IMG/VR virus record: IMGVR_UViG_3300009082_000017
Location: 62,001 to 126,000 of that record
Length of the DNA: 64,000 nucleotides
Strand: one strand, 5' to 3'
Origin: a virus
The position numbers were made by a program, and so were the translations under genes. Under the pieces are notes generated by a model. The model was not told the DNA's origin. It ran no database searches and saw only the letters and a program-made list of their open reading frames with translations. Each line of letters opens with the position of its first letter. The first letter of the stretch is position 1. Shown here one piece after another: positions 7,217 to 55,092 of this stretch.

Positions 7217-7363
7217 GGTGAAGTAAACCCAAACATCTATTATAAATAGATCAGGGTCTAGAGATTGCGATTTACAATCAGTTTGAATAAATTCAAACAA
7301 AGGAGTGAAATTGCTCCAATAAATTATATCATTCATGGGAAAAATAAAAAGAAAGGAGGTCAA
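7217..7363 (+). other. leader region upstream of tnpB
   Basis: This 147-nt stretch has several small palindromes. They are ATCTAT-TAT-AATAGAT-like at about 7235-7251, GTTTGAAT/ATTCAAAC at about 7281-7298, and GGAG/CTCC at about 7303-7318. It also has a hairpin repeat at 7319-7336. It is probably the left end of the IS-derived tnpB unit or its 5' leader. Confidence 0.4.
7319..7336. repeat. hairpin repeat upstream of tnpB
   Basis: CCA-ATAAAT / tatatc / ATTCAT-GGG; degenerate copy, 6-nt loop, 27 nt before the TnpB start. Confidence 0.5.
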
Positions 7364-8575
7364 TTGATTGTTAATCGCATTGAAAAACATTGCATTAAAA
7401 GGAACACTCCATTATGGAAAGTTATAGATCAAAAATGTTGGGAAGCCAAAAGTTTATATAATTGTGCTAATTATATTATCACACAAGAATTTAAATCTAC
7501 TGGAAAGTGGATTAGATATTATAGTCTTGACAATATGATGCAAAGTACTTTACAATACAAACGATTAGGTTCTCAGGCTGCGCAGAACACATTGGTTTTA
7601 CTTGATAGAGACTGGCGTTCATTTTTTAAAGGAATCAAACAATGGTCTAAAAAGAAAGGAGAAGGATTTTTTGGTAAACCAGAAATGCCTTTCTATAAAA
7701 AGAAAAATGGTAGAAGTGTTTTAATGATAAAAAATATTCAATGTAGAATAGAAGGGAATAAACTTATTTTTTCTTGGCTACCATTAAGAAAATTTAGTGG
7801 TATTCCCACAAAAGCAACAGGAAAATTAATGCAAGTGCGTTTTGTTCCAAAAGGATCATGTTATTATATGGAGATAGTTTATCAAATAAACATTCCTGAC
7901 CAAAAGAAATTTAATAATCGCATTGCAGGAATAGATTTAGGCGTTAATAATTTTGCCACTATTGTAAACAATATCGGTCTTAGACCAATTTTTGTTAAGG
8001 GTAATATTATTAAATCTATGAATCAGTATTATAATAAAGAACGTGCTGAAATATCTAGATCAACTGGAATGGTCTGGAATAATAGAATGAGGAGATTAAC
8101 AGATAAACATTTGAAAAAATTAGATACTTACACCCATACAGTTAGCAAAAGAATTATAGAATATTGTTTAGAAAATAATATAGATACACTTATTGTTGGG
8201 CTTACTAAAGAATGGAAGGATGGAATTAATCTAGGACACGTTAATAATCAAAATTTTGTATGTATTCCTTATGATAAATTTATTCTTCAGTTACAATATA
8301 AATGTGAAAACATTGGAATAAGATTTATTATGAATGAAGAAAACTTTACATCTGGTACAAGTTTTCTTGATAATGAATTACCTATTGAGGAAAACTATAA
8401 TATTAAGCGTAGGATTAAAAGAGGTTTATTTAAATCTAACAATGGCGCAGTTATTAATTCCGATGTTAATGGTGCATATCAAATTGTTAAGAAAGTATAC
8501 CCAAACGCTTTTACAGAAATGTTTAGCAGAGGGATTAGAGGGTGTGATTTACACCCAATTAAGCTAGTAATCTAG
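7364..8575 (+). CDS. tnpB: TnpB-type RNA-guided nuclease (IS200/IS605 OrfB), copy 1
   Basis: About 403 aa. The TTG start at 7364 is chosen because AAAGGAGG ends 4 nt before it and because the second copy (35399) starts at the same point (LIVNR/MIVNR). Domains: a helical N-terminal region, then RuvC with motif I (GIDLGVNNFATI), the LIVGLTKEWKDGINLGHVNN block, EENFTSGTSFLDNE where classical TnpB has the zinc finger, and motif III (NSDVNGAYQI). The zinc-finger cysteines are missing and the usual RuvC-II Glu position is a Gly. This is typical of one OrfB branch, in which a nearby Glu may serve instead. No TnpA is adjacent. It probably acts as a guided nuclease (family knowledge), maybe in homing. 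Confidence 0.9.
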   Translation: MIVNRIEKHCIKRNTPLWKVIDQKCWEAKSLYNCANYIITQEFKSTGKWIRYYSLDNMMQSTLQYKRLGSQAAQNTLVLLDRDWRSFFKGIKQWSKKKGEGFFGKPEMPFYKKKNGRSVLMIKNIQCRIEGNKLIFSWLPLRKFSGIPTKATGKLMQVRFVPKGSCYYMEIVYQINIPDQKKFNNRIAGIDLGVNNFATIVNNIGLRPIFVKGNIIKSMNQYYNKERAEISRSTGMVWNNRMRRLTDKHLKKLDTYTHTVSKRIIEYCLENNIDTLIVGLTKEWKDGINLGHVNNQNFVCIPYDKFILQLQYKCENIGIRFIMNEENFTSGTSFLDNELPIEENYNIKRRIKRGLFKSNNGAVINSDVNGAYQIVKKVYPNAFTEMFSRGIRGCDLHPIKLVI

Positions 8576-17204: not shown

Positions 17205-17233
17205 TTGACTTTTTGCAATAAATATGATAATAT
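17205..17233 (+). promoter_or_regulatory. SigA-type promoter of the NAD cassette
   Basis: TTGACT 17205-17210, TAATAT 17228-17233, 17-nt spacer, within ATATGATAATATT. Confidence 0.7.
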
Positions 17234-17250
17234 TATAAAAAAGGAGCATT

Positions 17251-18024
17251 ATGAAAATATTCGCAATAGATAATGGAGCAAATTTAAAACTAACCACATT
17301 CCCAGACGGACAACCTCATATCCAGGTTATTGATTTTGATCCTCCAGATGAGGCTATGGTAGTTTGTTCAATCACATCACCATCAAAACTTTTGCAATTA
17401 TTAGAATTGTCAAATGCATTACAATACCTAAAAACAAAAAGAACTTGTTTGAGTATTCCATATCTTATGTGCGCAAGATCAGATAGGCATATGTTGGAAG
17501 GTGATAGTTTTGATTTGGAAGTAATGGCGATATTAATTAATCTTTGCGATTTTGAAGAAGTTTTGTTATGTGATGTTCATTCTGAAGTTGCAACAAAACT
17601 AATCAAAAACTCTAAAAATATTGTTCCTAACTTATTAGAAAAATATGATAAAGAAAACCCTTTATATATTTGCCCAGACAAGGGAGCAATTAACAGAGTC
17701 CCAAAAGATGTAGAAGTGATTTATTGCGAAAAGTCTAGGGATTTATCAACAGGAAAAATTACACTCAAAGTAAATACTCCAGAAAAAGCGTGGGGTAGAA
17801 ATTGTATTATTGTTGATGACATTTGCGATGGAGGAGGAACATTTATTGCAATAGCCGAACAAATTAATCCAAATCATTTAACGCTTGCTGTGACCCATGG
17901 AATTTTTTCAAAAGGGTTAGACATATTATTTGAATATTTTGATGAAATTATTACTACCAATAGTTATGCCTGTTTTGACTTACAAGAAAAATATAAAAAT
18001 TTAAAAATGATCAGGGTATCATAA
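17251..18024 (+). CDS. Prs-like pyrophosphokinase, candidate ADP-ribose pyrophosphate synthetase (Adps of NARP1)
   Basis: 257 aa, shorter than cellular PRPP synthetases (about 310). Family signatures are present. PYLMCARSDRHMLEGDSF is the flexible-loop/ATP region (about residues 70-87). CDVHSE (about 110-115) and YICPDKGAINR (about 141-151) follow. IIVDDICDGGGTF (about 188-200) is the PRPP loop. In the NARP1 pathway the enzyme annotated as ribose-phosphate pyrophosphokinase makes ADP-ribose-pyrophosphate from ADP-ribose and ATP. The partner annotated as Nampt (here immediately downstream) joins nicotinamide to remake NAD+. Sequence alone cannot separate Prs from Adps activity. Own promoter at 17205 and site AAAAAGGAGCATT. 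Confidence 0.87.
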   Translation: MKIFAIDNGANLKLTTFPDGQPHIQVIDFDPPDEAMVVCSITSPSKLLQLLELSNALQYLKTKRTCLSIPYLMCARSDRHMLEGDSFDLEVMAILINLCDFEEVLLCDVHSEVATKLIKNSKNIVPNLLEKYDKENPLYICPDKGAINRVPKDVEVIYCEKSRDLSTGKITLKVNTPEKAWGRNCIIVDDICDGGGTFIAIAEQINPNHLTLAVTHGIFSKGLDILFEYFDEIITTNSYACFDLQEKYKNLKMIRVS

Positions 18025-18049
18025 TAAAAAAGAAAAGGAGAAATATAAT

Positions 18050-19510
18050 ATGAAAGAAATTAATCCATTTTTACTTACCGACTTCTATAAGGTTGGACAT
18101 GTGTTTCAATATCCAAAAGGAACTACCCTTGTTTATTCAAATATGACACCAAGGCAATCACGCTTAAAAGGTGTTGATAAGATGGTGGTTTTTGGTATTC
18201 AGTGGTTTATTAAACGATACTTATTAGAATATTTTAATGAGAATTTCTTCAATCGTCCGAAAGAAGAAGTTATGGCTGAATACAAACGTATGATTTTTTA
18301 TACATTGGGTGGTGATTTGCCATCCTATGAACATATTGCTAAAATCCATGATTTAGGATTTTTGCCAATCGAAATTAAAGCATTACCAGAAGGATCAACA
18401 GTCTCTATGCGTATTCCTTTTCTTACGATTGTAAATACTAAACCAGAATTTTATTGGTTAACTAATTTTATTGAATCTTTGATTTCTTCTGTTATTTGGC
18501 AACCCTGTACAAGTGCCACTATTGCTTACGAATATCGTAAGATTTTGAATAAGTATGGCACAATTACAGGAATGTCTCCAGATACAGTTCAATGGCAAGG
18601 ACATGATTTCTCATTTCGTGGAATGAGCAGTCCTGAAAGTGCTGCGACTAGTGGTATGGCTCATTTGCTTTCCTTTACTGGAACCGATGGTATCCCTGCT
18701 ATTGCAAGACTTGAACAGTACTATAATGCAAATGTTGAAAAAGAACTTGTAGGTGCTAGTATTTCTGCTACGGAGCATTCTGTAATGAGTGCCGGTGGAT
18801 TTGAAAATCAATTCGATACATACAAACGATTGATTACGGAAATCTATCCAAATGGTATGCTTGCTATTGTTAGTGACACCTGGAATCTTTGGGATGTATT
18901 AACTGATTTTATGCCAAGGCTTAAGAATGACATTATGTCTCGTGATGGTAAAATTGTTATTCGTCCTGATAGTGGAGATCCTGTTTTAATTATTTGTGGA
19001 AATCCTGCTGGAAAAACTGAAGAAGAGCGTAAAGGTGTTGTTGAGCTTCTTTGGGAAGTGTTTGGTGGAACTCTTACTTCTACCGGCTATAAACTGCTTG
19101 ATTCTCATATTGGAACCATTTATGGCGATAGTATTACACGAGAACGTTGTGAAGAAATTTGCTCACGTTTAGAGAAAAAAGGTTTTGCTTCTCAGGCGGT
19201 TTTAGGAATTGGTAGTTATACTTACCAATACAATACTCGTGATACTTTTGGAACAGCAATGAAGTCAACTTATGTTGAAATTAAAAATATTGGTATGGCA
19301 ATTTTTAAACATCCTGTTACAGACGATGGAACCAAGTTTTCTGCAACTGGTTTGTTAGAAGTTGTAAAAGATGGTAATAGAGAATTTGTGTTGAAAGAAA
19401 ATGTAACTTGGGATGAAGAAAAACAAGGCGAATTAAAAACTGTATTTTTGGATGGAAAGTTGACAAAAGATTTTACTCTGGCAGAAATTAGAAATAATCT
19501 TTGGGGTTAG
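18050..19510 (+). CDS. Nampt-like transferase, candidate Namat of NARP1
   Basis: 486 aa, full length for nicotinamide phosphoribosyltransferase. Visible landmarks: LTDFYKVGHVFQYPKGT (about residues 9-25), FSFRGMSSPESAATSG (about 187-202), ISATEHSVM with the catalytic-region His (about 237-245), IVIRPDSGDP (about 303-312) binding the phosphoribosyl group, and GDSITRERCEEI. It starts 25 nt after the Prs-like gene with AAAAGGAGAAATATAAT, so the two form an operon. Known roles of the family are NMN synthesis from PRPP (Nampt) or NAD+ synthesis from ADPR-PP (Namat). The latter rebuilds NAD+ destroyed by defence systems such as Thoeris. Confidence 0.9.
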   Translation: MKEINPFLLTDFYKVGHVFQYPKGTTLVYSNMTPRQSRLKGVDKMVVFGIQWFIKRYLLEYFNENFFNRPKEEVMAEYKRMIFYTLGGDLPSYEHIAKIHDLGFLPIEIKALPEGSTVSMRIPFLTIVNTKPEFYWLTNFIESLISSVIWQPCTSATIAYEYRKILNKYGTITGMSPDTVQWQGHDFSFRGMSSPESAATSGMAHLLSFTGTDGIPAIARLEQYYNANVEKELVGASISATEHSVMSAGGFENQFDTYKRLITEIYPNGMLAIVSDTWNLWDVLTDFMPRLKNDIMSRDGKIVIRPDSGDPVLIICGNPAGKTEEERKGVVELLWEVFGGTLTSTGYKLLDSHIGTIYGDSITRERCEEICSRLEKKGFASQAVLGIGSYTYQYNTRDTFGTAMKSTYVEIKNIGMAIFKHPVTDDGTKFSATGLLEVVKDGNREFVLKENVTWDEEKQGELKTVFLDGKLTKDFTLAEIRNNLWG

Positions 19511-26440: not shown

Positions 26441-27580
26441 ATGAACCAAACCCTATACCAAAAAGATTCAAGTGATAGAATTCGTTCCTGGCAAATTGAG
26501 GTTATTCAACATTCTGATTCTAGCGATATTGTTATTAGCACAGGATTATTAGATGGTGCTAAAGTAAAAACTGTAACTCAAATTACAGAAGGAAAGAATA
26601 TTGGTAAGTCCAATGGCACAGATCATTATTCTCAGGCCATATTAGAAGCCAATAGTAAAATTGAATCACAACTTAAAAAGGGATATGTTAAGGATTTTGA
26701 TAATATCCAGAGTAAAGATGTTTTGGGGAGTGGTGTGCTTGCGCCGATGCTTGCCCACAAACATCATCCTACTGGTGCGCAAAAGAGTAGTAAAACTTTA
26801 GCACAGATGGGTATTTTGGGGAAGAAGATATTCTGCCAGCCGAAGCTAGATGGGAATAGATGCCTAATTAAAGTTGAAAATGGTGTAGCGACTATGTACA
26901 CGAGAAGCGGCGATGTTATGCCGGTGCAGCTTAAAAATATTTTAGATGATGTTCTTAAGGGTCGTACTCAAGTAGAATCTTTTATTTTAGATGGCGAATT
27001 GTTTTCAAACAAATTTTCTTTCAATAAATTAAATGGATTGATCAAACGTCAAACGGTATCAAAAGAGGATATTGAAGAACGAAAAAACATCAAGTATCAT
27101 TTGTATGACGTTATGACAGATGAAGGTTATGAAAAGCGTTATGACTTTATTAAAAACTTCGCCTCTGATAATATCGAAGTAATCCCTAATTTTGAGATTA
27201 TTGCAACAGATGAAAATATTCAAAAATATCTTGAACAATTCCTTGCCGCAGGGAACGAAGGGTTGATGATCCGGCAACTTGGAATGCCTTACGATCATAA
27301 ACGTAGTTGGCAATTGGTTAAGGTTAAGGTGTTTGAAGATGAAGAGTTTGAATTAATTGGGTTCGAGGAAGATAAGAGAAAAGGCTTTGTTGGAGCGTTT
27401 GTTATGTTGAATAAAGATGGAAATACTTTTAATGCTGGAGCTTCAGGACAGGGTGAGCAGGAACGAACTTATATGTGGAGCCATCCAGAAGAATTTATTG
27501 GTAAAATGGCGACAGTGTGTTATTTTGGCATGTCTGAGTACAATGTGCCCCGATTCCCCAAATTCAAAGGGCCAAAGTAA
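26441..27580 (+). CDS. ATP-dependent DNA ligase
   Basis: 379 aa. An N-terminal WGR-like beta domain (SWQIEV, TGLLDGAKV, GKNIGKSNGT; about residues 17-60) precedes the nucleotidyltransferase domain. Motif I is QPKLDGNR with the adenylated Lys at about 135. FILDGELF is motif III/IIIa, EGLMIRQ is motif IV, and LVKVKVF is motif V. A C-terminal OB fold follows (FELIGFEED...MATVCYFGM). It seals nicks in phage replication or repair. AAAAGGAGAATCCAA precedes ATG. Confidence 0.92.
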   Translation: MNQTLYQKDSSDRIRSWQIEVIQHSDSSDIVISTGLLDGAKVKTVTQITEGKNIGKSNGTDHYSQAILEANSKIESQLKKGYVKDFDNIQSKDVLGSGVLAPMLAHKHHPTGAQKSSKTLAQMGILGKKIFCQPKLDGNRCLIKVENGVATMYTRSGDVMPVQLKNILDDVLKGRTQVESFILDGELFSNKFSFNKLNGLIKRQTVSKEDIEERKNIKYHLYDVMTDEGYEKRYDFIKNFASDNIEVIPNFEIIATDENIQKYLEQFLAAGNEGLMIRQLGMPYDHKRSWQLVKVKVFEDEEFELIGFEEDKRKGFVGAFVMLNKDGNTFNAGASGQGEQERTYMWSHPEEFIGKMATVCYFGMSEYNVPRFPKFKGPK

Positions 27581-27586
27581 ATCCCA

Positions 27587-27604
27587 ATGAATCGTTGATT
27601 TTGT
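27587..27604. repeat. intergenic hairpin repeat (degenerate)
   Basis: ATGAAT / cgttga / TTTTGT-TGG; weak, but position and 6-nt loop fit. Confidence 0.4.
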
Positions 27605-27623
27605 TGGCTAAAAAAGGAGTAAA

Positions 27624-28001
27624 ATGGCAAAAAGACTTGCAGAATTTCAAAAATATAAATTCATCAATCCAGATCCAACCCTACGAAACAATCTTATGGC
27701 TTTTGGGTTTGAAATTGGTGACGGTTGGATTCCTATCATGCGAGAACTGTGTGAGAAAATTCAAGCAGAAATTGATTCTGATCCTGAAGCTTATAAGGAC
27801 TTAGAATTTACACAAGTGAAAGAAAAATGGGGTGGGTTAAGGGTATATTTAACTTATTATTATCCTAAGATTGAAGAATTGGTGGATGATGCTGAAGCGA
27901 AGTCTTTTGAAACTTGTGAAATTTGTGGTAAACCAGGGGAATTAAGAGACAGAGGTTGGATGTCAACTTTATGTAATGAGTGTAACGAAAAGGAGAAATA
28001 A
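27624..28001 (+). CDS. conserved phage protein with C-terminal zinc motif (125 aa)
   Basis: AAAAAGGAGTAAA before ATG. EKWGGLRVYLTYY (about residues 69-81), then CEICGKPGELRDRGW (about 98-112) and TLCNECNEK (about 115-123), giving a four-cysteine zinc site. I recall this EKWGGLRFY...C..CG.PG pattern from hypothetical phage proteins. Function unknown. Confidence 0.73.
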   Translation: MAKRLAEFQKYKFINPDPTLRNNLMAFGFEIGDGWIPIMRELCEKIQAEIDSDPEAYKDLEFTQVKEKWGGLRVYLTYYYPKIEELVDDAEAKSFETCEICGKPGELRDRGWMSTLCNECNEKEK

Positions 28002-28002
28002 T

Positions 28003-28218
28003 ATGAAAGGCAAATTCAGGAAAGACCATGACGATCACAACTATTTTATTCCAGAAATCTCTCTAGAAGCTTTTGACGATTATCAGACTAGGCTTGGATT
28101 ACTTGATTTTTATGGAGATGAGTGGGAGGCTTTGAATGATGAGTTTTTAGAAAGATTTGAGAAACTTGTTTTGAAGTACCCGCCCAATCATTATTTAATT
28201 GAAATGTCATTACCATGA
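28003..28218 (+). CDS. hypothetical protein (71 aa)
   Basis: ATG at 28003 follows AAAAGGAGAAATAAT; the upstream alternative is rejected. Charged start with several His, then DDYQTRLGLLDFYGDEWEAL. Its TGA is in the next hairpin arm. Not recognised. Confidence 0.7.
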   Translation: MKGKFRKDHDDHNYFIPEISLEAFDDYQTRLGLLDFYGDEWEALNDEFLERFEKLVLKYPPNHYLIEMSLP

Positions 28219-28232
28219 AATGCCAGTTTTAT
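28215..28232. repeat. hairpin repeat containing upstream stop codon
   Basis: ACC-ATGAAA / tgccag / TTTTAT-TAG; its TGA ends the preceding gene. Confidence 0.8.
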
Positions 28233-28255
28233 TAGAATGACGGAAAGGATAAATT

Positions 28256-28696
28256 ATGTGTAGACCAGAACCAGAAAGGACACCTATGGCTGTTTATGAA
28301 AGACCAGAACCAACTACACTACCTCCAACATCAAGACCAACTATTCATAATGAGAATTGTTGTTCACATTGCGGAAGTGGAATTGATGCAGAAGACAAAA
28401 ATTGTACAAGATGTGGTGCCCCAAATGAAAATTATATGCAAAATAATATCAAAAAACAAACATATAATAAGGTTGTATGGATGGATGAATGTTTATATTT
28501 TGATTCAAATGGGTTTACACGGCTTAGTCATAAGGCGAAAAATGGAATTGTTGGAATTGTAGACAAAAGTAATGAAAATTCTTATACATATTACAGAATG
28601 GATACATATATGCCTCATGAAACCTATGACATTATTGGTTGTAGTGATTTGAAAAATAAAACAGTTTTAGTAAGTTACAACCCCATGAATGTGTAA
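28256..28696 (+). CDS. zinc-ribbon protein with proline-rich N-terminus (146 aa)
   Basis: GGAAAGGATAAATT before ATG. Pro/Arg/Glu-rich N-terminus (about residues 1-30), then a CSHCGSGIDAEDKNCTRCG zinc ribbon (about 36-54) like the zinc-ribbon_2 type. A strand-rich C-terminal domain follows. Function unknown; its end overlaps a hairpin. Confidence 0.72.
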   Translation: MCRPEPERTPMAVYERPEPTTLPPTSRPTIHNENCCSHCGSGIDAEDKNCTRCGAPNENYMQNNIKKQTYNKVVWMDECLYFDSNGFTRLSHKAKNGIVGIVDKSNENSYTYYRMDTYMPHETYDIIGCSDLKNKTVLVSYNPMNV

Positions 28697-28702
28697 TTTT
28701 AT
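28685..28702. repeat. hairpin repeat overlapping stop and start (variant)
   Basis: CCCC-ATGAAT / gtgtaa / TTTTAT-GG; upstream stop TAA is in the loop and the next gene may start at 28701 in the 3' arm. Confidence 0.68.
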
Positions 28703-28922
28703 GGAAAAGAAATGGTGGATAAATATTAAAAAGATGAATAATGATATAAATGTATTGCCCGTTGGTGATATAAAATCGCATATCGAAGATGCAACTTGCC
28801 CCTGCAATCCGAGAATTGAAGTTATAAGGGCTAATTTATTAATTGTTCATCATGCTTGGGATAATAGAGAATTATTTGAGGAAATTGATGCTGCTATAAA
28901 AGATGGTAGTTTAATGAAATAG
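28701..28922 (+). CDS. conserved small phage-type protein (73 aa)
   Basis: Start at 28701 in the hairpin arm (an ATG at 28734 is the alternative). INVLPVGDIKSHIEDATCPC then NPRIEV and IVHHAWDNRELFEE match a family of short phage proteins (VlPvnDl.eH....C.C.P......VHns.DgRE). Function unknown. Possible metal site from Cys/His. Confidence 0.72.
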   Translation: MEKKWWINIKKMNNDINVLPVGDIKSHIEDATCPCNPRIEVIRANLLIVHHAWDNRELFEEIDAAIKDGSLMK

Positions 28923-28931
28923 TGCTTTCAT
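28914..28931. repeat. hairpin repeat containing upstream stop codon
   Basis: ATGAAA / tagtgc / TTTCAT-GG; the TAG in the loop ends the preceding gene. Confidence 0.78.
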
Positions 28932-28952
28932 GGATAAAATTAAGGAGAAATA

Positions 28953-29123
28953 ATGGATTATAAAAAGGTTTACGGGCACGTTGATAAGTTTGGTGATTTT
29001 TATGAGGATAAAGAAGAGGCATCAGATGAACCGGATTTGATTATTAATTTTGACGAATATTTTCGATGGTTTTATGTTATGAAAATTGTCAAATTTTTCA
29101 AGAAACTATTACACATAAAATGA
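28953..29123 (+). CDS. hypothetical protein (56 aa)
   Basis: TAAGGAGAAATA before ATG at 28953; open to TGA 29121. Acidic first half, basic/hydrophobic C-terminal helix (YVMKIVKFFKKLLHIK), possibly membrane-associated. Not recognised. Confidence 0.6.
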   Translation: MDYKKVYGHVDKFGDFYEDKEEASDEPDLIINFDEYFRWFYVMKIVKFFKKLLHIK

Positions 29124-29132
29124 GCAATTCAT
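29115..29132. repeat. hairpin repeat containing upstream stop codon (degenerate)
   Basis: ATAAAA / tgagca / ATTCAT-GG; TGA in the loop is the upstream stop. Confidence 0.5.
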
Positions 29133-29141
29133 GGAGTACAA

Positions 29142-29240
29142 ATGAATAGTAAAAATAAAAACATACAGACAATAATTTGGATTCTAGGAATCATATTATT
29201 CCTTATAATTACTTTTGGAGAAAGTTTTAGGTGGTGGTAA
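29142..29240 (+). CDS. single-TM micropeptide (32 aa)
   Basis: ATGGAGTACAA precedes ATG at 29142. Basic start (MNSKNKN), one hydrophobic segment (about residues 9-26) and a Trp-rich end. Its sequence overlaps the ribosome-binding site of the next gene. Confidence 0.5.
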   Translation: MNSKNKNIQTIIWILGIILFLIITFGESFRWW

Positions 29241-29241
29241 A

Positions 29242-29451
29242 GTGACAAAAGAAAAGAAAATTTTACATAATCGTGCTCAATGCAAAAAATGCAACGATAT
29301 TATTGAATCAAAAACTGTTCATAATTTTGTTTCTTGTAAATGTGGTGAAATTTTTATTGATGGTGGTTTAGAATATTGCCATTGGGGAGCTAATGATTTG
29401 GATAATATTATTGATATGTGTGAATATGAAAGCGAAGAATCTAATGGGTAA
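29242..29451 (+). CDS. DUF7695-like zinc protein (69 aa)
   Basis: GTG start at 29242 after AGGTGGTGGTAAA; an upstream in-frame ATG is less well placed. KKILHNRAQCKKCNDIIES then FVSCKCGEIFIDGGL matches a family of small phage proteins with CxxC and CxCG knuckles. Function unknown. Confidence 0.72.
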   Translation: MTKEKKILHNRAQCKKCNDIIESKTVHNFVSCKCGEIFIDGGLEYCHWGANDLDNIIDMCEYESEESNG

Positions 29452-29824
29452 ACTTGGAATACAATTAGTTTTTAAGCCAACATCCGAAGATTATGAAGAT
29501 GATGAATTTTATCGTTTTGATAATTTAAATTGGGGACTATCTGATTACAGTTTCTTTGGAAACGATACTTCTGCTGGAGACTGGTATATAGAATCTATTG
29601 GATTTTCAGATTTATATGAAGGTTATTTAAAAGAAGTTATTGATCCTATTGCTATAGAAAGAATAAGAGAATATTCGCAAAATACAAATTATGATAGACT
29701 CTATGATAAGAAAATACAGATTCCAATTCTTGTTGATGCTTGGTGGGAAGAAGAAATTGATTGGGAGTCAGGTGTAGATGAAGGCTCATATGAATTTCAG
29801 TTTGATAGAATTTTAGATATATAA
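29444..29824 (+). CDS. hypothetical protein (126 aa)
   Basis: ATG at 29444 overlaps the preceding gene by 8 nt (ATG at 29426 is an alternative). Very acidic and aromatic (DYEDDEFYRFDNLNWGL, AWWEEEIDWESG). Not recognised. Confidence 0.68.
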   Translation: MGKLGIQLVFKPTSEDYEDDEFYRFDNLNWGLSDYSFFGNDTSAGDWYIESIGFSDLYEGYLKEVIDPIAIERIREYSQNTNYDRLYDKKIQIPILVDAWWEEEIDWESGVDEGSYEFQFDRILDI

Positions 29825-29844
29825 TTAGTATGGAAGGAATGAAA

Positions 29845-30075
29845 ATGTATAAAGATATTTGTACAATAGCGACAGTATTATTGCGAGATGGAACTTTCTT
29901 ACGGGCAGTAATATTTGATGATAATAATCCCAAAGAAAGATCAATCCAAGACGAAGCGATAATTCGTCAAAAGTTTACTGAAGATAAATTAATAGCATTT
30001 CAAACCGCAAATATCAATGGTCATTTCCATCCTATTAATGTTTTGTGGTATGATATTATTTTTGAAGAGTTTTAA
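29845..30075 (+). CDS. hypothetical protein (76 aa)
   Basis: ATG at 29845 follows GAAGGAATGAAA; the ATG at 29830 precedes the site. Strand-rich (TIATVLLRDGTFLRAVIF). Not recognised. Confidence 0.68.
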   Translation: MYKDICTIATVLLRDGTFLRAVIFDDNNPKERSIQDEAIIRQKFTEDKLIAFQTANINGHFHPINVLWYDIIFEEF

Positions 30076-30079
30076 CCCC

Positions 30080-30097
30080 ATAAAAGGAGAATTTCAT
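30080..30097. repeat. hairpin repeat with SD in loop and start codon in 3' arm
   Basis: CCCC-ATAAAA / ggagaa / TTTCAT-GG. AAAAGGAG spans arm and loop; the next gene starts at 30096. Confidence 0.75.
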
Positions 30098-30371
30098 GGA
30101 TTACAGAGATGAGATACAAGAATTTTTAAAAGAGTTTGAAAAAGAATTTAAATTAAATTTACAACAACTAAATTGGGTAGACCAAAGACTAGAGGAAGTA
30201 TATAGTTTTGGTTTAGACGATGGTCAAAATTCTAGATCTGAAAAAGATTATGACGAAGGCTATAGTGACGCTAAAGATTATTTTACAAACGAAGATAGAG
30301 AAGATGAATTTTATGACGATGGATATAAAAAAGGATATGAAGAAGCAAAAAGGGATTATGGGATCGAATGA
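30096..30371 (+). CDS. highly acidic repetitive protein (91 aa)
   Basis: Start inside the hairpin 3' arm, SD in its loop. After a helical N-terminus there are related short repeats: YDEGYSDAKDYF, FYDDGYKKGYEEAK (pattern D-x-GY-x2-A/G). DNA-mimic-like charge, but no family is recognised. ATGA overlap with the next gene implies translational coupling. Confidence 0.72.
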   Translation: MDYRDEIQEFLKEFEKEFKLNLQQLNWVDQRLEEVYSFGLDDGQNSRSEKDYDEGYSDAKDYFTNEDREDEFYDDGYKKGYEEAKRDYGIE

Positions 30372-31345
30372 AAATTAACACTGAAGAATATTATGATTAT
30401 GACGATCTTGTTATTAAACCGAAACCATCATCTATCCCATCAAGGGATGATGTTGATATTTCTGTTAATGTGCTAGATAGATTCACATTAAAATTTCCAG
30501 TTTTTGCAAGCCCAATGAGGGCAATTGTAAACGCTGATTTTTGTAAATTGTTTGCTGATTTAGGAGGTTGTGGAATCCTTCATCGTTTCTATGACACAAA
30601 AGACGAATGGTATCTAGAAGCAGAAAAAATATCTGAAGCAAAAATATTTGGTTTGTCTATTGGCATGAATGATTATGCAGTTGCCATGGATTTTCTTAAA
30701 TTTAATCCTCATGTGATTTTATTAGATGTCGCAAATGGCTACACCGACTCTGTTATTAATTTTTGTAAAAGTTTGCGAAAGTTAATTGATAAGGAAAGTC
30801 CTAGTACGTTATTAATGGCTGGCAATATTGCAAGTTATGAAGGAGCCGAAAATCTTTATAAAGCAGGTGTTGATATGGTTCGCTGCGGAATTGGGGGTGG
30901 CGGTCTTTGCTCAACTAGGAATAAAACTGGTGTGGCGGTTCCTCAACTTTCAGCAGTTATGGATTCATCTAAATCTGATGTGTTTATTGTAAATGATGGT
31001 GGAATTAGAAATGCTGGTGATGCAACAAAAGCATTTATAGCAGGAGCAGATGCAATTATGTGTGGCAGTATCCTTGCACAAACTTATGAAAGTCCAGCCG
31101 AGAATACCATTTTCGGTATGGCCTCAAGAAAGTTACAGGATTTGCGTCACACACAAGTAAAATCTGTTGAAGGAATTGAAAAGTTTATTGAAAAGAAAAT
31201 GTCTCTAAAAGATTTTGTGGAAGAATTTTCTTGGGATATGCGATCTACTGGAACAATGATTAATGCTAGAAGTCTTCAAGAAATGCGAAATAATGGCGAA
31301 TTTCTTAAGGTTGGCAAAGGTACATTGAGTCTTGACAAGAATTAG
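30368..31345 (+). CDS. GMP reductase / IMP dehydrogenase family enzyme
   Basis: 325 aa TIM barrel. FPVFASPMRAIV (about residues 43-54), LLDVANGYTDSV, LLMAGNIASYEGAENLYKAG, then CGIGGGGLCSTRNKTGVAVPQ with catalytic Cys at about 181. IVNDGGIRNAGD and ADAIMCGSILA follow. The short length without CBS domains and the KTGV motif favour GMP reductase (GMP to IMP) over IMP dehydrogenase. It heads a run with RNA ligase and kinase genes. A role in purine supply, or in making a precursor of a modified base, is inference. Confidence 0.88.
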   Translation: MKINTEEYYDYDDLVIKPKPSSIPSRDDVDISVNVLDRFTLKFPVFASPMRAIVNADFCKLFADLGGCGILHRFYDTKDEWYLEAEKISEAKIFGLSIGMNDYAVAMDFLKFNPHVILLDVANGYTDSVINFCKSLRKLIDKESPSTLLMAGNIASYEGAENLYKAGVDMVRCGIGGGGLCSTRNKTGVAVPQLSAVMDSSKSDVFIVNDGGIRNAGDATKAFIAGADAIMCGSILAQTYESPAENTIFGMASRKLQDLRHTQVKSVEGIEKFIEKKMSLKDFVEEFSWDMRSTGTMINARSLQEMRNNGEFLKVGKGTLSLDKN

Positions 31346-31360
31346 TTTATGTGATATAGT
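31332..31360 (+). promoter_or_regulatory. SigA-type promoter of the RNA-repair pair
   Basis: TTGACA 31332-31337, TATAGT 31355-31360, 17-nt spacer; the -35 lies in the last codons of the upstream gene. Confidence 0.72.
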
Positions 31361-31393
31361 TATGGTATAAAATAAATAAACCAAGGAGATAAT

Positions 31394-32482
31394 ATGAGCA
31401 CATTGATTGTAGAAATTTGCGAAATTGAAAACGTCCAGAAGCATCCTAACGCTGACCGATTATCGGTAGCCCAAGTGAAGGGTTGGAACGTGATCATCGG
31501 ATTAGACCAATATAAAAATGGAGACCTCGTAACATTTATCCCTCCAGATTGCATCATACCTCCTAACCTTATTGAAGAACATAAGTTGGAATATTTACGT
31601 AGCGATGGTCGCACCAAAAGTGTTAAACTTCGTGGGTATTTGTCTCAAGGTCTTGTGTTAGATGTACCTAAAGGAAAATTCAAATTAGGAGATGATGTAT
31701 CTTCTGTTTTGGGTATTACAAAATGGCAACCTCCTGAACCAAAATATTCTGCACAAAATCAAACAAAGAAAACTTCTAAAAAGAAAATTAATCCTTTGTT
31801 TGATAAATATACTGATATTGAGAATATCAAACATTATAATGATGTTTTCAAAGATGGTGATATTGTTGCGATAACCGAAAAGATCCATGGCGCGAATTCA
31901 CGTTACGCCAATCTTGAAATTTCTATCAATAAAAACCAACCATTCTTTGATAGGATTGAATCATTTATTAAAAAATATATTTTAAAACATACTCATGAAT
32001 TTGTATATGGTTCACACAATGTTCAAATTACTTATCATTCAAACAGAAAGTCTTTCTATGGAGAAGATGTTTGGGGGAGTATTGCAAAGAAATATAATTT
32101 GGCAAATATTATTCCTCAAGATTATATTGTTTATGGTGAGGTGTATGGGCAAGGAATTCAAGATTTGACCTATGGGCTTTCTAGTGTTGATTTAGTAGTA
32201 TTTGATATTAAATATAAAAATCAATATTTAGATTGGGAAGTTGTAAAAGATTTATGCCAGCAATGGAATTTAAAGACTGTCCCACAATTATATGTAGGAG
32301 AATTTTCAAATGAAATCCTAAGACTGACTGATGGGAATTCTATGGTTTGCCCATATCAAATTCGTGAGGGAATTGTAATCAAGATGCTTCATGAAGAAAA
32401 TGATCCTATAATTGGGAGGAAAATTTTGAAGAGTGTTAGTGCTGATTATTTGACCCGTAAGGGAGCGACGGAATACCAATGA
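31394..32482 (+). CDS. RNA ligase with N-terminal OB domain
   Basis: 362 aa. An N-terminal OB-like domain (HPNADRLSVAQVKGWNVIIG, then GDLVTFIPPD) is followed by a ligase domain. Motif I is ITEKIHGANSR with nucleotidyl Lys at about 163. YIVYGEVYGQGIQDLTYG (motif III/IIIa) and EGIVIKML (motif IV) follow. This matches the Rnl5/DraRnl-type layout of OB plus ligase. Together with the next gene it would heal and seal cut RNA, e.g. tRNAs cut by host anticodon nucleases. ATGA overlap with the kinase gene. Confidence 0.88.
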   Translation: MSTLIVEICEIENVQKHPNADRLSVAQVKGWNVIIGLDQYKNGDLVTFIPPDCIIPPNLIEEHKLEYLRSDGRTKSVKLRGYLSQGLVLDVPKGKFKLGDDVSSVLGITKWQPPEPKYSAQNQTKKTSKKKINPLFDKYTDIENIKHYNDVFKDGDIVAITEKIHGANSRYANLEISINKNQPFFDRIESFIKKYILKHTHEFVYGSHNVQITYHSNRKSFYGEDVWGSIAKKYNLANIIPQDYIVYGEVYGQGIQDLTYGLSSVDLVVFDIKYKNQYLDWEVVKDLCQQWNLKTVPQLYVGEFSNEILRLTDGNSMVCPYQIREGIVIKMLHEENDPIIGRKILKSVSADYLTRKGATEYQ

Positions 32483-33312
32483 AAAAAGTTATTCTCACTA
32501 AGGGACTCCAAGGTTGCGGGAAAACAACTTGGGCAAAACAGATGCAAGCAGATTTTCCTAATCAGTATAAGCGCGTCAATAAGGACGATCTTAGACTCAT
32601 GCTTGATAATTCTATTTGGAGCAAAGGAAATGAAAAGTTTGTTTTAAAACTTCGTGATCATATTATTTTACAAGCATTAGAAGATGGAAAGCATGTGATT
32701 GTGGACGACACTAATTTAAATGTCGTCCACGAAAACCATATCAAAGAATTAGTAAAGGGTTTGGCAGAAGTAGAAATAAAAGACTTCACGGACATTGATA
32801 TTGAAACTTGTATCAAAAATGATACTAAACGTGCTAATCCTGTTGGAGAAAAGATTATTCGTCAAACCTATAAACAATGGTTGTATAAAGAACCGGTTAA
32901 GCCAGAATATATAAACGATGCTCCAGATGTGATTATTTGTGACATGGATGGTACACTATCATTATTCGGTGATAAGAATCCATACGAAAGAGATTTTGAA
33001 AATGATATATTAAATAATGTTATTTATGATATTATCAAAAATAAAAACTTACTTTTCGTTTCTGGACGTAAAAATAAATATAGAAATAAAACATTAGAAT
33101 TTTTGCAAAACAATAATATTAAATTTATTTCTTTGTTTATGCGAGGCGATGAGGATGATAGAAAAGATTCTATTGTCAAAAAAGAAATTTACGAGAAATA
33201 TATCTTAGGGAAATATAATGTTCAATTTGTTTTAGATGATCGAACACAGGTTGTAAAATTATGGCGTTCTTTAGGACTGACATGTCTACAAGTAGCAGAT
33301 GGTGATTTTTAA
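32479..33312 (+). CDS. pnkP: polynucleotide 5'-kinase / 3'-phosphatase (T4 Pnkp-like)
   Basis: 277 aa. Kinase domain with P-loop GLQGCGKTT (residues 9-17) and VIVDDTNL (about 73-80). C-terminal HAD phosphatase domain with DMDGT (residues 155-159), FVSGRKNKYR and a late FVLDDR. The order kinase then phosphatase is as in T4 Pnkp. Overlaps the RNA ligase by ATGA, so both products are made together. Confidence 0.93.
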   Translation: MKKVILTKGLQGCGKTTWAKQMQADFPNQYKRVNKDDLRLMLDNSIWSKGNEKFVLKLRDHIILQALEDGKHVIVDDTNLNVVHENHIKELVKGLAEVEIKDFTDIDIETCIKNDTKRANPVGEKIIRQTYKQWLYKEPVKPEYINDAPDVIICDMDGTLSLFGDKNPYERDFENDILNNVIYDIIKNKNLLFVSGRKNKYRNKTLEFLQNNNIKFISLFMRGDEDDRKDSIVKKEIYEKYILGKYNVQFVLDDRTQVVKLWRSLGLTCLQVADGDF

Positions 33313-35398: not shown

Positions 35399-36598
35399 TT
35401 GATTGTAAATAGAACCGAAAGACATATTATTAAAAACACCGATGCTATGTGGAAAATCATAGATCGAAAATCTTTTTTAGCTAAAAATTTGTATAACGAA
35501 GCCACATATGCCGTTAGACAGGAATTTTTCGCAACGGGAAGTTGGATTAGAGACCACGAACTAGATAAATTGTTGCAAAGTAGTGAAAATTATAAACAAT
35601 TGGGTTCGCAAGCATCACAAAAAACAATTCAACTTGTAGACAAGAACTTTAAATCATATTTTAAGGGAATTAAAGACTGGTCTAAGAAAAGCGGGAAAGG
35701 TTATTTTGGCAAACCATCTCTTCCTAATTACAAAAAGAAAGATGGACGCAGTATTGTAATAATTAAAAATATTCAGTGTAGGATACAAAATGGAGAAATT
35801 TATTTTTCTTGGAAGCCTTTACGAGAATTTACAGGTATTAAAACTAGTATATTAGGAGGATTACAACAAATTCGTTTTGTGCCCATGGGTTCAACTTATG
35901 TAATGGAAATTGTTTATCAAATTAAAGTGCCAAAAGTGAAAAATTTTACTAATAGAATTATGGGAATAGACCTAGGAGTTAATAATCTTGCAACTATTTC
36001 AAACAATATTGGTATTCAACCAATTATTGTTAAGGGTGGGGTTATTAAGTCTATGAATAGATACTATAATAAAGAGAGAAAGAATATTTCAATAGAGACA
36101 GGTATGATTTGGAACAAGAGGATGCGTTTACTAACTGACAAACATATGCGAAAGATGGACAGCTATATGCATTTAGTAAGTCGAAGGATTGTGGAATATT
36201 GCCAGAAATATGACGTGGGTACTTTGGTAATTGGCTTGACAAAAGAATGGAAAGATGGTATAAATATTGGACACGTAAATAATCAAAATTTTGTATCAAT
36301 CCCTCATGAGAAATTGATCCAACAATTGCAATATAAGTGTGAGAATGTTGGAATTAATTGTGTTGTTACAGAGGAAAAGTTTACATCAGGGACAAGTTTT
36401 TTGGATAATGAGCTTCCTACAGAGGATAATTATAATATAAAGAGAAGAGTCAAAAGAGGAGTATTTAAATCTAATGATGGTATAAAATTGAATTCTGATG
36501 TTAATGCGGCATTTCAAATTATTAAAAAAGTATTCCCAGACGCTTTCAAGCAATGGGATAGAGGTTGTGGTTTACAGCCGGTTGCGCTAGAAATCTAG
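35399..36598 (+). CDS. tnpB: TnpB-type RNA-guided nuclease (IS200/IS605 OrfB), copy 2
   Basis: 399 aa, TTG start after AAAAGGATAAAATC. Strongly similar along its length to copy 1 at 7364. RuvC-I is GIDLGVNNLATIS, then LVIGLTKEWKDGINIGHVNN, EEKFTSGTSFLDNE, RVKRGVFKSNDGIKLNSDVN (RuvC-III) and a C-terminal GCGLQPVALEI. As in copy 1, the zinc-finger cysteines and the standard RuvC-II Glu are absent. No TnpA nearby. Hairpin repeats flank it. Confidence 0.9.
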   Translation: MIVNRTERHIIKNTDAMWKIIDRKSFLAKNLYNEATYAVRQEFFATGSWIRDHELDKLLQSSENYKQLGSQASQKTIQLVDKNFKSYFKGIKDWSKKSGKGYFGKPSLPNYKKKDGRSIVIIKNIQCRIQNGEIYFSWKPLREFTGIKTSILGGLQQIRFVPMGSTYVMEIVYQIKVPKVKNFTNRIMGIDLGVNNLATISNNIGIQPIIVKGGVIKSMNRYYNKERKNISIETGMIWNKRMRLLTDKHMRKMDSYMHLVSRRIVEYCQKYDVGTLVIGLTKEWKDGINIGHVNNQNFVSIPHEKLIQQLQYKCENVGINCVVTEEKFTSGTSFLDNELPTEDNYNIKRRVKRGVFKSNDGIKLNSDVNAAFQIIKKVFPDAFKQWDRGCGLQPVALEI

Positions 36599-44736: not shown

Positions 44737-44910
44737 ATGTGTTTTAAAAAGAAAAATAATAAATATATGAAATGCCCATTATGTAGAGGGAAAGGTTATA
44801 CGGGAATTATAATACATGAAAAGTGTCCAAGGTGTGAAGGCGATAAAAAAGTATTAAAATCAGAAGACGAATCAAAAACTTGTGGAACTTGTGGTGGAAG
44901 ATTAGATTGA
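44737..44910 (+). CDS. DnaJ-type zinc-finger microprotein (57 aa)
   Basis: AGAGAGACGTAA precedes ATG at 44737; open to TGA 44908. CPLCRGKGY, CPRCEGD and CGTCGG are three CxxCxG-type knuckles as in the DnaJ cysteine-rich domain without the J domain. Basic N-terminus. Its stop touches the next start. Confidence 0.66.
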   Translation: MCFKKKNNKYMKCPLCRGKGYTGIIIHEKCPRCEGDKKVLKSEDESKTCGTCGGRLD

Positions 44911-45422
44911 TGCGTTATCTCGTACATTTAAAAAATATTTTGCTTCATAAATATTATGTTTTTTTTGCTTGTTTGAAATTAAAAGTCCCTTTGTATTTAG
45001 CAATTTTTCACGATATTTCAAAATTTAAATTATCTGAATTTATTCCATATGCTAAATATTATTATAATAAAGACGGATCTCATGCCGATGTAAAAGACAA
45101 ACACGGTGAATTAGAATACACTAAAGAAGCAAACAATATTAAAGTGGCGTGGCTATATCATTCTCATACAAACAGGCATCATTGGAACTATTGGATTACT
45201 ATTAGGTCTGATGGATTAATTTATCCAAATATAATTCCCGATAAATATATAAAAGAAATGGTTGCAGATTGGATAGGTGCATCTAAAGCTTATAATCTAA
45301 ATATTAAGGTTATTGATTGGTATAATAAGGAAAAAGAAAACTTAATATTACATCAAGATACTAGAACAAAAATAGAAAAAATATTACAAATATTGGAGTA
45401 TAATGGAAATAATAGAAACTGA
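44910..45422 (+). CDS. DUF5662 family protein (170 aa), copy 2
   Basis: ATG at 44910 overlaps the preceding TGA. FHDISKFKLSEFIPYAKYYY, AWLYHSHTNRHHWNYW, MVADWIGASKAY and DTRTKIEKIL match copy 1 at 19517. Conserved His/Asp suggest a metal site. Function unknown. It overlaps the RmlC-like gene by 20 nt. Confidence 0.78.
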   Translation: MRYLVHLKNILLHKYYVFFACLKLKVPLYLAIFHDISKFKLSEFIPYAKYYYNKDGSHADVKDKHGELEYTKEANNIKVAWLYHSHTNRHHWNYWITIRSDGLIYPNIIPDKYIKEMVADWIGASKAYNLNIKVIDWYNKEKENLILHQDTRTKIEKILQILEYNGNNRN

Positions 45423-45945
45423 AATCCCAGAAGTTGTTATTTTTAATCCCATTATTTATGGAGATAATAGAGGTTTTTTTGCAGAGATATTTGTTTATAA
45501 AGAATTTGAAAATAGATGTGGGAATTATTTATTTGTTCAAGAAAATTATTCAAAATCTATTAAGAATACTTTACGTGGACTTCATTATCAATTACAAAAA
45601 GAGCAAGGCAAATTGGTATCTTGTATTAATGGTGAAATATTTGATGTGGCTGTGGATATTAGAAAAAATTCGCCCACTTATAAAAAATATGTATCTGTTT
45701 TATTATCAGATAAAAACAAAAAAATGGTTTGGATTCCACCTGGATTTGCTCACGGGTTTTTTACTTTAAGCGATATTGCCGAAATAGAATATCGTTGTAC
45801 AAATTATTATAGCAAAGAAAATGAAAGAGGTATTAGGTGGGATGATCCGAGTGTTGGAATTAATTGGCCTATACAAGATGGAGAATTGCCTATATTGTCT
45901 GAAAAAGATAGTAAATTAAATTTTATTAATAGTGAGGAGAATTGA
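45403..45945 (+). CDS. rmlC: dTDP-4-dehydrorhamnose 3,5-epimerase-like (RmlC family)
   Basis: 180 aa cupin, full length. GFFAEIFVYKEF, FVQENYSKSIKNTLRGLHYQ (with the RGLHYQ signature, about residues 58-63), EIFDVAVDIRKNSPTYKKYV, WIPPGFAHGFF (catalytic-region His) and RGIRWDDPSVGINWP. It epimerises 4-keto-6-deoxy sugar nucleotides. First enzyme of the glycan cluster and tightly coupled to the next gene. Confidence 0.92.
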   Translation: MEIIETEIPEVVIFNPIIYGDNRGFFAEIFVYKEFENRCGNYLFVQENYSKSIKNTLRGLHYQLQKEQGKLVSCINGEIFDVAVDIRKNSPTYKKYVSVLLSDKNKKMVWIPPGFAHGFFTLSDIAEIEYRCTNYYSKENERGIRWDDPSVGINWPIQDGELPILSEKDSKLNFINSEEN

Positions 45946-47081
45946 TGCAAAAAGGTAATACGTTGAAAGTTCCAGTTACTGGGCAAGTTACAGGCGATGA
46001 AGAAACTGAAGCAATTATAGAAGTTGCAAAATCAAAGCAATATGCTCCTAATAAAAAAGTTGAGCAATTTGAGCATGATTTTGCAAAATTTGTTAAAAAA
46101 AGATATGGTTTATTTGTAAATAGTGGATCTTCTGCTAATTTATTAGCGACAACTGCTTGGGCGAAATATCATGAAAAAGAAACAAAAGCATTGGAATGTA
46201 CTCTTCCTGCTTTAATGTTTCCTACTACCTTGAATCCCTATCTCCAAAATAATTTTACTATAAAATTAATAGACGTAGAAGTTGAAACTCTGCAAGCAAA
46301 AAGCCCAGAAAAACATGGTGTGCATACATTAGGGAATTATGCGGATTTGTCAAATATAGAGGACAGTTGTGACGCCATGCTTCCAGGTCATTACAAGGGA
46401 GAGATACAAACCTTTTCTTTCTTCCCCGCACATTTTTTGTGTACCGGCGAAGGGGGAATGGTCACTACAGATAATCCTGAATTATATAAGTTGATGCGTT
46501 CAATTATGCATTGGGGTAAGGATTGCTGGTGCCCTCTTGGTAGCGACAATACTTGTGGTAAAAGATTTGAACATCAATTTGGAGAAATGCCTTATGGGTA
46601 TGATCATAAATATATTTATACCAATATTGGATATAATTTAGCCAATACTGAAATGGCTGCTGCAATGGGAATTGAACAATTGAAAAAACTTCCTTATTTT
46701 CTTGAAACTAGAAAAAATAATTTTAAGAAATTATATGAAGGATTGTCTAAATTTTCTGATAGCTTTATTCTTCCAAAAACAGTTTTACCAGATACTCCAT
46801 GGTTTGCATTTCCTATTACCGTCAAAAGAGAATCAAAAATTTCAAGACGAGATATGGTAGAATTTCTTAATAATGAAGGTGTTGCTTCAAGACCTATCAT
46901 GGGTGGAAATTTAAAGAGACAACCTGCATATTTAAATATAAAATTTAAGTATGGTGGGATATTAGAAAATTCTGATCTCATCACAGATAATTCATTTTAT
47001 ATTGGTTTATGGCATGGATTGTTCGAAGAACAAATTGAATATAGTATTAATACTATTGAAAGATTTATGGAAATGCAATGA
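45945..47081 (+). CDS. RfbH-like PMP-dependent sugar 3-dehydratase (DegT/DnrJ fold)
   Basis: 378 aa. DegT/DnrJ/EryC1 fold. In FSFFPAHFLCTGEGG the PLP-lysine position is His (about 163), as in the E1/RfbH and ColD dehydratases. DCWC-x7-C (Cys about 194, 196 and 204) plus Cys about 142 resembles the [2Fe-2S] ligand set of E1. GYDHKYIYTNIGYNLANTEM is the RfbH core. The family removes the 3-OH of CDP-4-keto-6-deoxyglucose to give 3,6-dideoxy sugars. No partner reductase (E3) is visible. Confidence 0.85.
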   Translation: MQKGNTLKVPVTGQVTGDEETEAIIEVAKSKQYAPNKKVEQFEHDFAKFVKKRYGLFVNSGSSANLLATTAWAKYHEKETKALECTLPALMFPTTLNPYLQNNFTIKLIDVEVETLQAKSPEKHGVHTLGNYADLSNIEDSCDAMLPGHYKGEIQTFSFFPAHFLCTGEGGMVTTDNPELYKLMRSIMHWGKDCWCPLGSDNTCGKRFEHQFGEMPYGYDHKYIYTNIGYNLANTEMAAAMGIEQLKKLPYFLETRKNNFKKLYEGLSKFSDSFILPKTVLPDTPWFAFPITVKRESKISRRDMVEFLNNEGVASRPIMGGNLKRQPAYLNIKFKYGGILENSDLITDNSFYIGLWHGLFEEQIEYSINTIERFMEMQ

Positions 47082-47788
47082 AAATATTAGCATTAGGATA
47101 CGGAAAGTTAGGACAAGAAATTGTTAAACAATCTGGTTGGGATTATATTAGCCGAGAAAAAAATAATTTTGATTTCAACAATATAAATTCTTACAATAAA
47201 TATCTTTACAATTATGACACAATAATAAATTGTATAGCAAACACATATACTTATTCTGACGACAAACAATCAATGATCGATACTAACTTCAAAGCAGTTG
47301 TGAACCTAATAGAATTCTCAAATTTGTATAATAAGAAGTTAATCCAAATAGGAACGGATTACATTTATGATGGGTCAGTAGAAAATGCTTCAGAAGAAGA
47401 TATTCCTGTCCATGCAAGAAATTGGTATTCTTATTCAAAACTTTTAATAGATGGATATATACAAAGCTTTTGTGAAAATTATTTATTAATAAGAACATCG
47501 TTCAAGTCCAATCCATTTCCTTATCCAAAAGCAATCACTACGCAAAAAGGTAATTTTGATTATACAGATAAAATTGTTGAAAAAATAATTAACTTAATAA
47601 ACAATAATGCAATCGGTGTTTACAATGTTGGACATAATACACCATGGACTATTTACGAAATGGCTTTAGAAACAAATAAAGATGTTGTACCTTGTGATGA
47701 TATTTTAAATGAATCAATGCCTACAAATATTACAATGAATATGGAGAAGTATAATGAGTTTATTAGAAATCTTAATACCGGTTTATAA
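47078..47788 (+). CDS. RmlD-like dTDP-4-dehydrorhamnose reductase / short NAD(P)-sugar reductase
   Basis: 236 aa, a little shorter than RmlD. LALGYGKLGQEIV is the Rossmann glycine motif (GxGxLG). IINCIANTYT, LIQIGTDYIYDG and NWYSYSKLLIDG contain the Ser/Thr-Tyr-Lys catalytic set (YxxxK). Reduces a 4-keto sugar nucleotide. Overlaps both neighbours, so part of one operon. Confidence 0.85.
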   Translation: MKILALGYGKLGQEIVKQSGWDYISREKNNFDFNNINSYNKYLYNYDTIINCIANTYTYSDDKQSMIDTNFKAVVNLIEFSNLYNKKLIQIGTDYIYDGSVENASEEDIPVHARNWYSYSKLLIDGYIQSFCENYLLIRTSFKSNPFPYPKAITTQKGNFDYTDKIVEKIINLINNNAIGVYNVGHNTPWTIYEMALETNKDVVPCDDILNESMPTNITMNMEKYNEFIRNLNTGL

Positions 47789-49096: not shown

Positions 49097-49098
49097 TA

Positions 49099-52168: not shown

Positions 52169-52186
52169 GTTGCATAAGGGCGGAGT

Positions 52187-54256: not shown

Positions 54257-54260
54257 TATT

Positions 54261-55079: not shown

Positions 55080-55092
55080 TTTGTTTTAACCC

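What the first reader, a model, noticed from the sequence alone, without database searches (positions are those of the whole stretch)
17251..19510. Prs-like plus Nampt-like pair with the architecture of the NARP1 NAD+-rebuilding pathway
A short Prs-type kinase (257 aa) sits directly before a full-length Nampt-type transferase under its own promoter. In characterised NARP1 phages, genes with exactly these annotations rebuild NAD+ from ADP-ribose and nicotinamide and defeat NAD-depleting defences such as Thoeris. No NMN adenylyltransferase (needed by NARP2) is seen nearby, which favours NARP1. A DUF5662 gene follows within 6 nt and may be a new accessory part.
Basis: partly seen in the sequence, partly recalled or inferred. 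Interest (0 to 1): 0.72.

Follow-up and report, generated by a model that had tools for sequence, protein, structure and literature searches.

The report
Phage NAD+-rebuilding gene pair (NARP1)
A large tailed phage carries two neighbouring enzyme genes that match, in sequence motifs and family trees, the known NARP1 pathway by which phages rebuild the NAD+ that bacteria destroy to stop infection; it is a clear but new example of a known system, and the third gene beside it is probably unrelated.

Summary
At 17251-18024 and 18050-19510 of a 160,042-bp tailed-phage record lie an intact Prs-fold gene and an intact Nampt-fold gene, 25 nt apart, each with a Shine-Dalgarno site. A DUF5662 gene starts 6 nt later. 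The NARP1 reading is supported by tests that could have failed. (1) The Nampt-like protein is 57% identical to verified SPbetaL1 Namat, keeps 18 of its 20 NAD+-contact residues, carries the published Namat clamp motif, and falls with Namats, apart from eight Nampts, across a fully supported branch. (2) The Prs-like protein falls with SPbetaL1 Adps, apart from 20 true Prs. It keeps the catalytic residues but lacks the loop Thr/Ser that contacts ribose-5-phosphate (present in 20/20 Prs, 0/112 Adps-type proteins). (3) No PF01467 (NMN adenylyltransferase) domain was found in the record, arguing against NARP2. (4) A promoter-like motif recurring 11 times (0.30 expected) sits just upstream. The DUF5662 accessory idea is not supported: it neighbours NARP1 only in this phage lineage, has a second copy elsewhere, and 14 of 15 DUF5662 phage contigs show no Namat. 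Enzyme activity was not assayed. Verdict: new member of a known kind.

The parts
17205..17233 (+). Promoter-like element TTGACT-N17-TAATAT with an upstream TG (extended -10), one of 11 copies of a recurrent phage motif in the window
   Evidence: TTGAC-N15-TGNTANNNT 11 matches, 0.30 expected; generic scan not enriched
17240..17246 (+). Shine-Dalgarno site AAAGGAG before the Adps-like gene
   Evidence: sequence read
17251..18024 (+). Adps-like ADP-ribose pyrophosphate synthetase (Prs fold), 257 aa
   Evidence: families; tree; model pLDDT 93.9; E. coli PRPP synthetase TM 0.85
17815..17844 (+). Codons for the PRPP/R5P loop DDICDGGGTF (residues 189-198); G194 replaces the Thr/Ser of Prs, F198 replaces Leu/Ile/Val/Met
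18033..18040 (+). Shine-Dalgarno site AAAAGGAG before the Namat-like gene
   Evidence: sequence read
18050..19510 (+). Namat-like nicotinamide ADP-ribose transferase (Nampt fold), 486 aa
18161..18163 (+). Codon of Arg38, equivalent of the adenine-stacking Arg40 of the SPbetaL1 Namat selectivity-clamp loop
   Evidence: alignment; role from PMC12774641
19211..19243 (+). Codons for GSYTYQYNTRD (residues 388-398), the Namat selectivity-clamp helix motif
   Evidence: consensus from PMC12774641
19517..20032 (+). DUF5662 gene directly downstream; probably shares the transcript, probably not a NARP1 component

Best explanation
The two genes are a NARP1 module of a 160-kb tailed phage. The Prs-fold protein (Adps) transfers pyrophosphate from ATP to the 1''-position of ADP-ribose, giving ADPR-PP. 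The Nampt-fold protein (Namat) joins ADPR-PP with nicotinamide to give NAD+ in one step. Both substrates are products of host NADase defences (TIR, SIR2, SEFIR effectors), so the phage can replenish NAD+ after such a defence fires. Shown here: the anatomy, membership by tree and motif, and absence of the NARP2 enzyme domain. Inferred from verified homologues: the two reactions and the anti-defence effect.
For: Namat: 57% identity to SPbetaL1 Namat, whose gene in L104 encodes the sequence of PDB 9w5x (compare). 18 of 20 NAD+-contact residues are identical; the two changes (A362S, F392Y) occur in other phage Namats. Clamp loop Arg38 is present, and clamp helix GSYTYQYNTRD fits the published consensus, where all six phage Nampts aligned have Gly at the first aromatic position. 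The tree puts 8 Nampts (human, Xanthomonas, 6 phage) on one side of a 100* branch and the window inside Namat. Adps: 20 Prs form one side of a 99* branch and the window lies with SPbetaL1 Adps; the catalytic residues are kept and the T225 equivalent is lost. Both genes have the same nearest relatives (L002; Chitinophagaceae loci). The pair is recurrent: 72 of 80 viral Namat loci hold an Adps-type ORF in the fetched stretch, and L065 is a natural 803-aa Adps-Namat fusion. PF01467 is absent from the record. Biochemistry of homologues: PMC12774641, PMC13232231.
Against: No assay exists for these proteins. Window Adps is only about 30% identical to SPbetaL1 Adps, so its substrate rests on tree and motif. 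Verified Namat also makes NMN from PRPP in vitro (PMC12774641), so side activity is possible. The G000 record may be incomplete, so an NMN adenylyltransferase outside it, or of another family, is not excluded.
Confidence: 0.93

Rival explanations
1. A conventional salvage pair: a phage Prs makes PRPP and a phage Nampt makes NMN, which a host NMN adenylyltransferase turns into NAD+.
For: Both folds are those of Prs and Nampt; verified Namat keeps NMN-forming activity in vitro (PMC12774641).
Against: Both proteins fall on the Adps/Namat side of strongly supported branches. The adenine clamp is present where Nampts have Gly, and the R5P-contacting Thr/Ser is gone.
Confidence: 0.04
2. NARP2: Nampt plus an NMN adenylyltransferase encoded by the phage.
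For: Some phages carry Nampt next to a cytidyltransferase or NMN adenylyltransferase/Nudix gene (L113, L114, L116).
Against: PF01467 has no match in the 160-kb record although the control rings in 14 of 14 genomes; the transferase carries the Namat clamp, not the Nampt sequence.
Confidence: 0.01
3. A three-gene system in which DUF5662 is a functional part of this NARP1 module, for example feeding or recycling an ADP-ribose compound as RyDEP does in phage DyoEdafos.
For: 6-nt spacing and no further copy of the promoter-like motif between Adps and 24183. NARP1 operons can hold accessory enzymes: RyDEP (PMC13232231), an annotated macro-domain gene shortly after PAK_P4 Namat. DUF5662 has invariant His/Asp/Glu positions suggestive of a metal site.
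Against: Adjacent only in G000 and the near-identical contig G001; in L057 and L061 (sister rows in the Namat tree) a distant DUF5662 lies upstream and not adjacent; 41 of 50 NARP1 phage contigs lack DUF5662; 14 of 15 DUF5662 contigs show no Namat. A second DUF5662 copy lies at 44880-45422 in the same phage.
Confidence: 0.08

Closest known systems
NARP1 of Bacillus phage SPbetaL1 (Adps + Namat; OQ921341, PDB 9w5w/9w5x by sequence match)
   Same: Gene order, Prs and Nampt folds, clamp motif, 18 of 20 NAD+-contact residues; large-terminase relatives of this phage include SPbeta-like phages
   Different: 57% (Namat) and about 30% (Adps) identity; 25-nt gap rather than overlapping genes; followed by DUF5662
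Bacterial chromosomal NARP1 homologues (Chitinophagaceae, Clostridium loci L124-L161; Paenibacillus foliorum pfNARP1 in PMC12774641)
   Same: Adps-Namat pairs; Chitinophagaceae pairs are among the nearest relatives (Namat 66-68% by tblastn; Adps up to 54%)
   Different: Here on a phage; the Clostridium pairs are often separated by about 0.6-1 kb
NARP2 / phage Nampt with NMN adenylyltransferase (Stenotrophomonas phage Moby, Caulobacter phage RBC63, Vibrio phage PG07)
   Same: Nampt fold
   Different: 28-30% identity to the window protein, no clamp aromatics, no Adps beside it
RyDEP-NARP1 operon of mycobacteriophage DyoEdafos (PMC13232231)
   Same: NARP1 core
   Different: No RyR domain (PF02026) match in this record, though that search had no positive control

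Membership tests
NARP1 | Adps gene next to Namat gene | tested here: met
   Prs-like gene 25 nt upstream of Nampt-like gene
NARP1 | Transferase belongs to the Namat clade, not Nampt | tested here: met
   8 Nampts separated by a 100* branch; window inside Namat
NARP1 | Adenine selectivity clamp: GS-aromatic-x-x-x-aromatic-x-TRD helix motif and stacking loop residue | tested here: met
   GSYTYQYNTRD and Arg38; consensus from PMC12774641
NARP1 | Kinase belongs to the Adps clade, not Prs | tested here: met
   20 Prs on one side of a 99* branch
NARP1 | Catalytic residues intact in both enzymes | tested here: met
   Namat R305, D213, F187 and ATEHSV His; Adps H110, D143, K161, R163, D189, D190
NARP1 | Adps makes ADPR-PP from ADPR + ATP; Namat makes NAD+ from ADPR-PP + nicotinamide | not testable with these tools
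   needs purified proteins
NARP1 | Restores NAD+ and phage growth against an NADase defence | not testable with these tools
   needs a cell assay
NARP2 | NMN adenylyltransferase encoded with Nampt | tested here: not met
   no PF01467 match in 160 kb; controls positive
Cellular/phage Nampt | Nampt clade and Gly-rich helix without clamp aromatics | tested here: not met
Cellular Prs | Thr/Ser at E. coli T225, which hydrogen-bonds R5P (PMC9232217) | tested here: not met
   Gly194 in window; T/S in 20 of 20 Prs

The most novel reading that the evidence does not exclude
The Adps family has a signature that bears on the still unexplained question of how Adps chooses ADP-ribose over ribose-5-phosphate. 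Loss of the Prs loop Thr/Ser at E. coli position 225 (Gly, Lys, Tyr, Phe and others; never Thr/Ser in 112 Adps-type sequences), together with Phe after the loop Thr (107 of 112), would remove an R5P contact and make room for the ADP part. The window protein (G194, F198) is a typical example.
Probability: 0.4. Interest if true: 0.45.

Novelty: new member of a known kind. Interest (0 to 1): 0.3.

Why it matters
It adds a clear NARP1 module in a phage with no close named relative and shows that membership can be decided from sequence: the published Namat clamp motif, and a second, apparently undescribed marker in the Adps loop that separates Adps from Prs without exception in this sample. If that loop does set substrate choice, it opens the part of NARP1 whose selectivity was described as obscure (PMC12774641). 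The module itself is expected biology: 1,938 of 50,697 phage records encode a Namat/Nampt relative.

Tried and rejected
DUF5662 as a conserved NARP1 partner: rejected on neighbourhood counts in both directions. DUF5662 as a recognisable fold: a confident all-helical model (pLDDT 90.4) has no significant match in the PDB (best E 2.4); an HD-type metal site is only a guess from invariant His/Asp/Glu positions. The KxRDxxTGxI flexible-loop motif as an Adps marker: rejected, because the Prs of PDB 4twb has KERDRTTGEV and many Adps neighbours lack it. Other cADPR/ADPR handling genes in the record: no Macro (PF01661) or Tad2-like (PF11195) match, with positive controls; no RyR (PF02026) match, without a positive control. 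PADLOC gave no hits. No close viral relatives by Adps seed search, a limit of the seed method. No literature on DUF5662 in the held library.

Full report
Observation. The window is bases 62001-126000 of a 160,042-bp IMG/VR virus record. The two ORFs at 17251-18024 and 18050-19510 are intact, on one strand, 25 nt apart, each behind an AAGGAG-type ribosome site; a DUF5662 gene follows 6 nt later. The first is a Prs-fold protein that scores below the cut-off of the Prs subfamily model (85 of 113 bits). The second is far above the cut-off of its Nampt/NAPRTase-type model (551 bits, cut-off 405). An AlphaFold model of the first (pLDDT 93.9) is closest to E. coli PRPP synthetase (TM 0.85, E 9e-18).

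Phage context. The record's large terminase subunit is 37% identical to those of Thomasclavelia phages and about 32% to SPbeta-like phages, so this is a tailed phage, perhaps of a Bacillota host. The Namat and Adps nearest relatives are unnamed viral contigs and Chitinophagaceae (Bacteroidota) loci, so the host is not settled.

Nampt or Namat. [quoted passage not shown] The window protein reads GSYTYQYNTRD with Arg38 in the loop. Of 20 residues that contact NAD+ in the SPbetaL1 structure, 18 are identical, and the two changes (A362S, F392Y) occur in other phage Namats. Six phage Nampts have Gly at the first aromatic position. A 130-row tree places all 8 Nampts (human, Xanthomonas, six phage) on one side of a 100% SH-aLRT branch and the window among Namats. 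The tree is a quick search with some long branches, but this is the deepest split in it.

Prs or Adps. I compared the window protein with 112 distinct Adps-type proteins (itself included) and 20 Prs; most of the Prs were taken from the same bacterial genomes that also hold NARP1 pairs. The Prs form one side of a 99% branch; the window lies with the Adps of SPbetaL1 and other NARP1-type phages. The residues known to act in E. coli Prs are kept in the window protein (R96, R99, H131, D170, K194, R196, D220, D221, T228 equivalents). One R5P contact, T225 (PMC9232217), is not: it is Thr or Ser in 20 of 20 Prs and in none of 112 Adps-type proteins, where it is Gly (83), Lys, Tyr, Arg, Phe or another residue; the residue after T228 is Phe in 107 of 112. 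I found no description of this marker. The 2026 structural paper states that the selectivity mechanism of Adps was obscure. That the marker explains selectivity is my inference.

Pathway logic. No PF01467 domain occurs in the record, so NARP2 is disfavoured. 72 of 80 viral Namat relatives have an Adps-type ORF in the fetched stretch, and several of the other 8 are cut near the gene. One contig (L065) fuses Adps and Namat in a single 803-aa frame. The two window genes have the same nearest relatives. All this fits a co-inherited two-enzyme pathway.

Expression. A generic promoter scan shows nothing exceptional. The specific form TTGAC-N15-TGNTANNNT occurs 11 times in the window, all on the + strand, against 0.30 expected by shuffling. 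Caveat: I chose the form after seeing this site, so the figure is optimistic. One copy ends 17 nt before the Adps start codon; the next downstream is at 24183. DUF5662 and further genes probably share the transcript.

DUF5662. It is next to NARP1 only here and in a near-identical contig; two other contigs (L057, L061) have a distant DUF5662 upstream but not adjacent. 9 of 50 NARP1 phage contigs carry DUF5662, mostly far from Namat; 14 of 15 DUF5662 contigs show no Namat. Many contigs are fragments, so absences are soft. The same phage has a second DUF5662 at 44880-45422. The simplest reading is an unrelated phage gene that happens to lie in the same transcript.

Verdict. A well-supported new member of NARP1, with enzyme activity and anti-defence effect inferred from homologues. 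Interest is modest; the Adps loop marker is the part worth following.

Noticed in passing
window 44880-45422: A second DUF5662 gene, about 49% identical to the one beside NARP1, stands at the start of a sugar-metabolism cluster.
   Followed up: partly
window 45403-58515: A long cluster with dTDP-4-dehydrorhamnose epimerase, DegT aminotransferase, a radical SAM protein and probable glycosyltransferases, unusual cargo that may decorate virion or host surface.
   Followed up: partly
window 7265-8575, 35399-36598, 60078-61253: TnpB/OrfB-like genes; Pfam confirms the first and third (OrfB_IS605 and Cas12f1-like TNB). Not examined for guide RNAs.
   Followed up: no
window 26441-33312: ATP-dependent DNA ligase, IMPDH-like protein, RNA ligase and a PNKP-type polynucleotide kinase close together, possibly an RNA-repair pair (ligase and kinase adjacent).
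   Followed up: no
L065:5065-7476: Natural fusion of Adps and Namat in one 803-aa reading frame.
   Followed up: yes
L124-L161: Adps-Namat pairs in bacterial genomes; in several Clostridium species the two genes are separated by about 0.6-1 kb; what lies between was not read.
   Followed up: partly
L120 (Listeria phage LP-048): A Namat-branch protein with a divergent clamp (GAYMYSFSLSRD) beside an Adps-type gene; substrate preference may differ.
   Followed up: no
window 1851, 12401, 15091, 17205, 24183, 31332, 37386, 44137, 55093, 59652, 63022: Eleven copies of TTGAC-N15-TGNTANNNT, all on the + strand, probably a class of phage promoters.
   Followed up: partly
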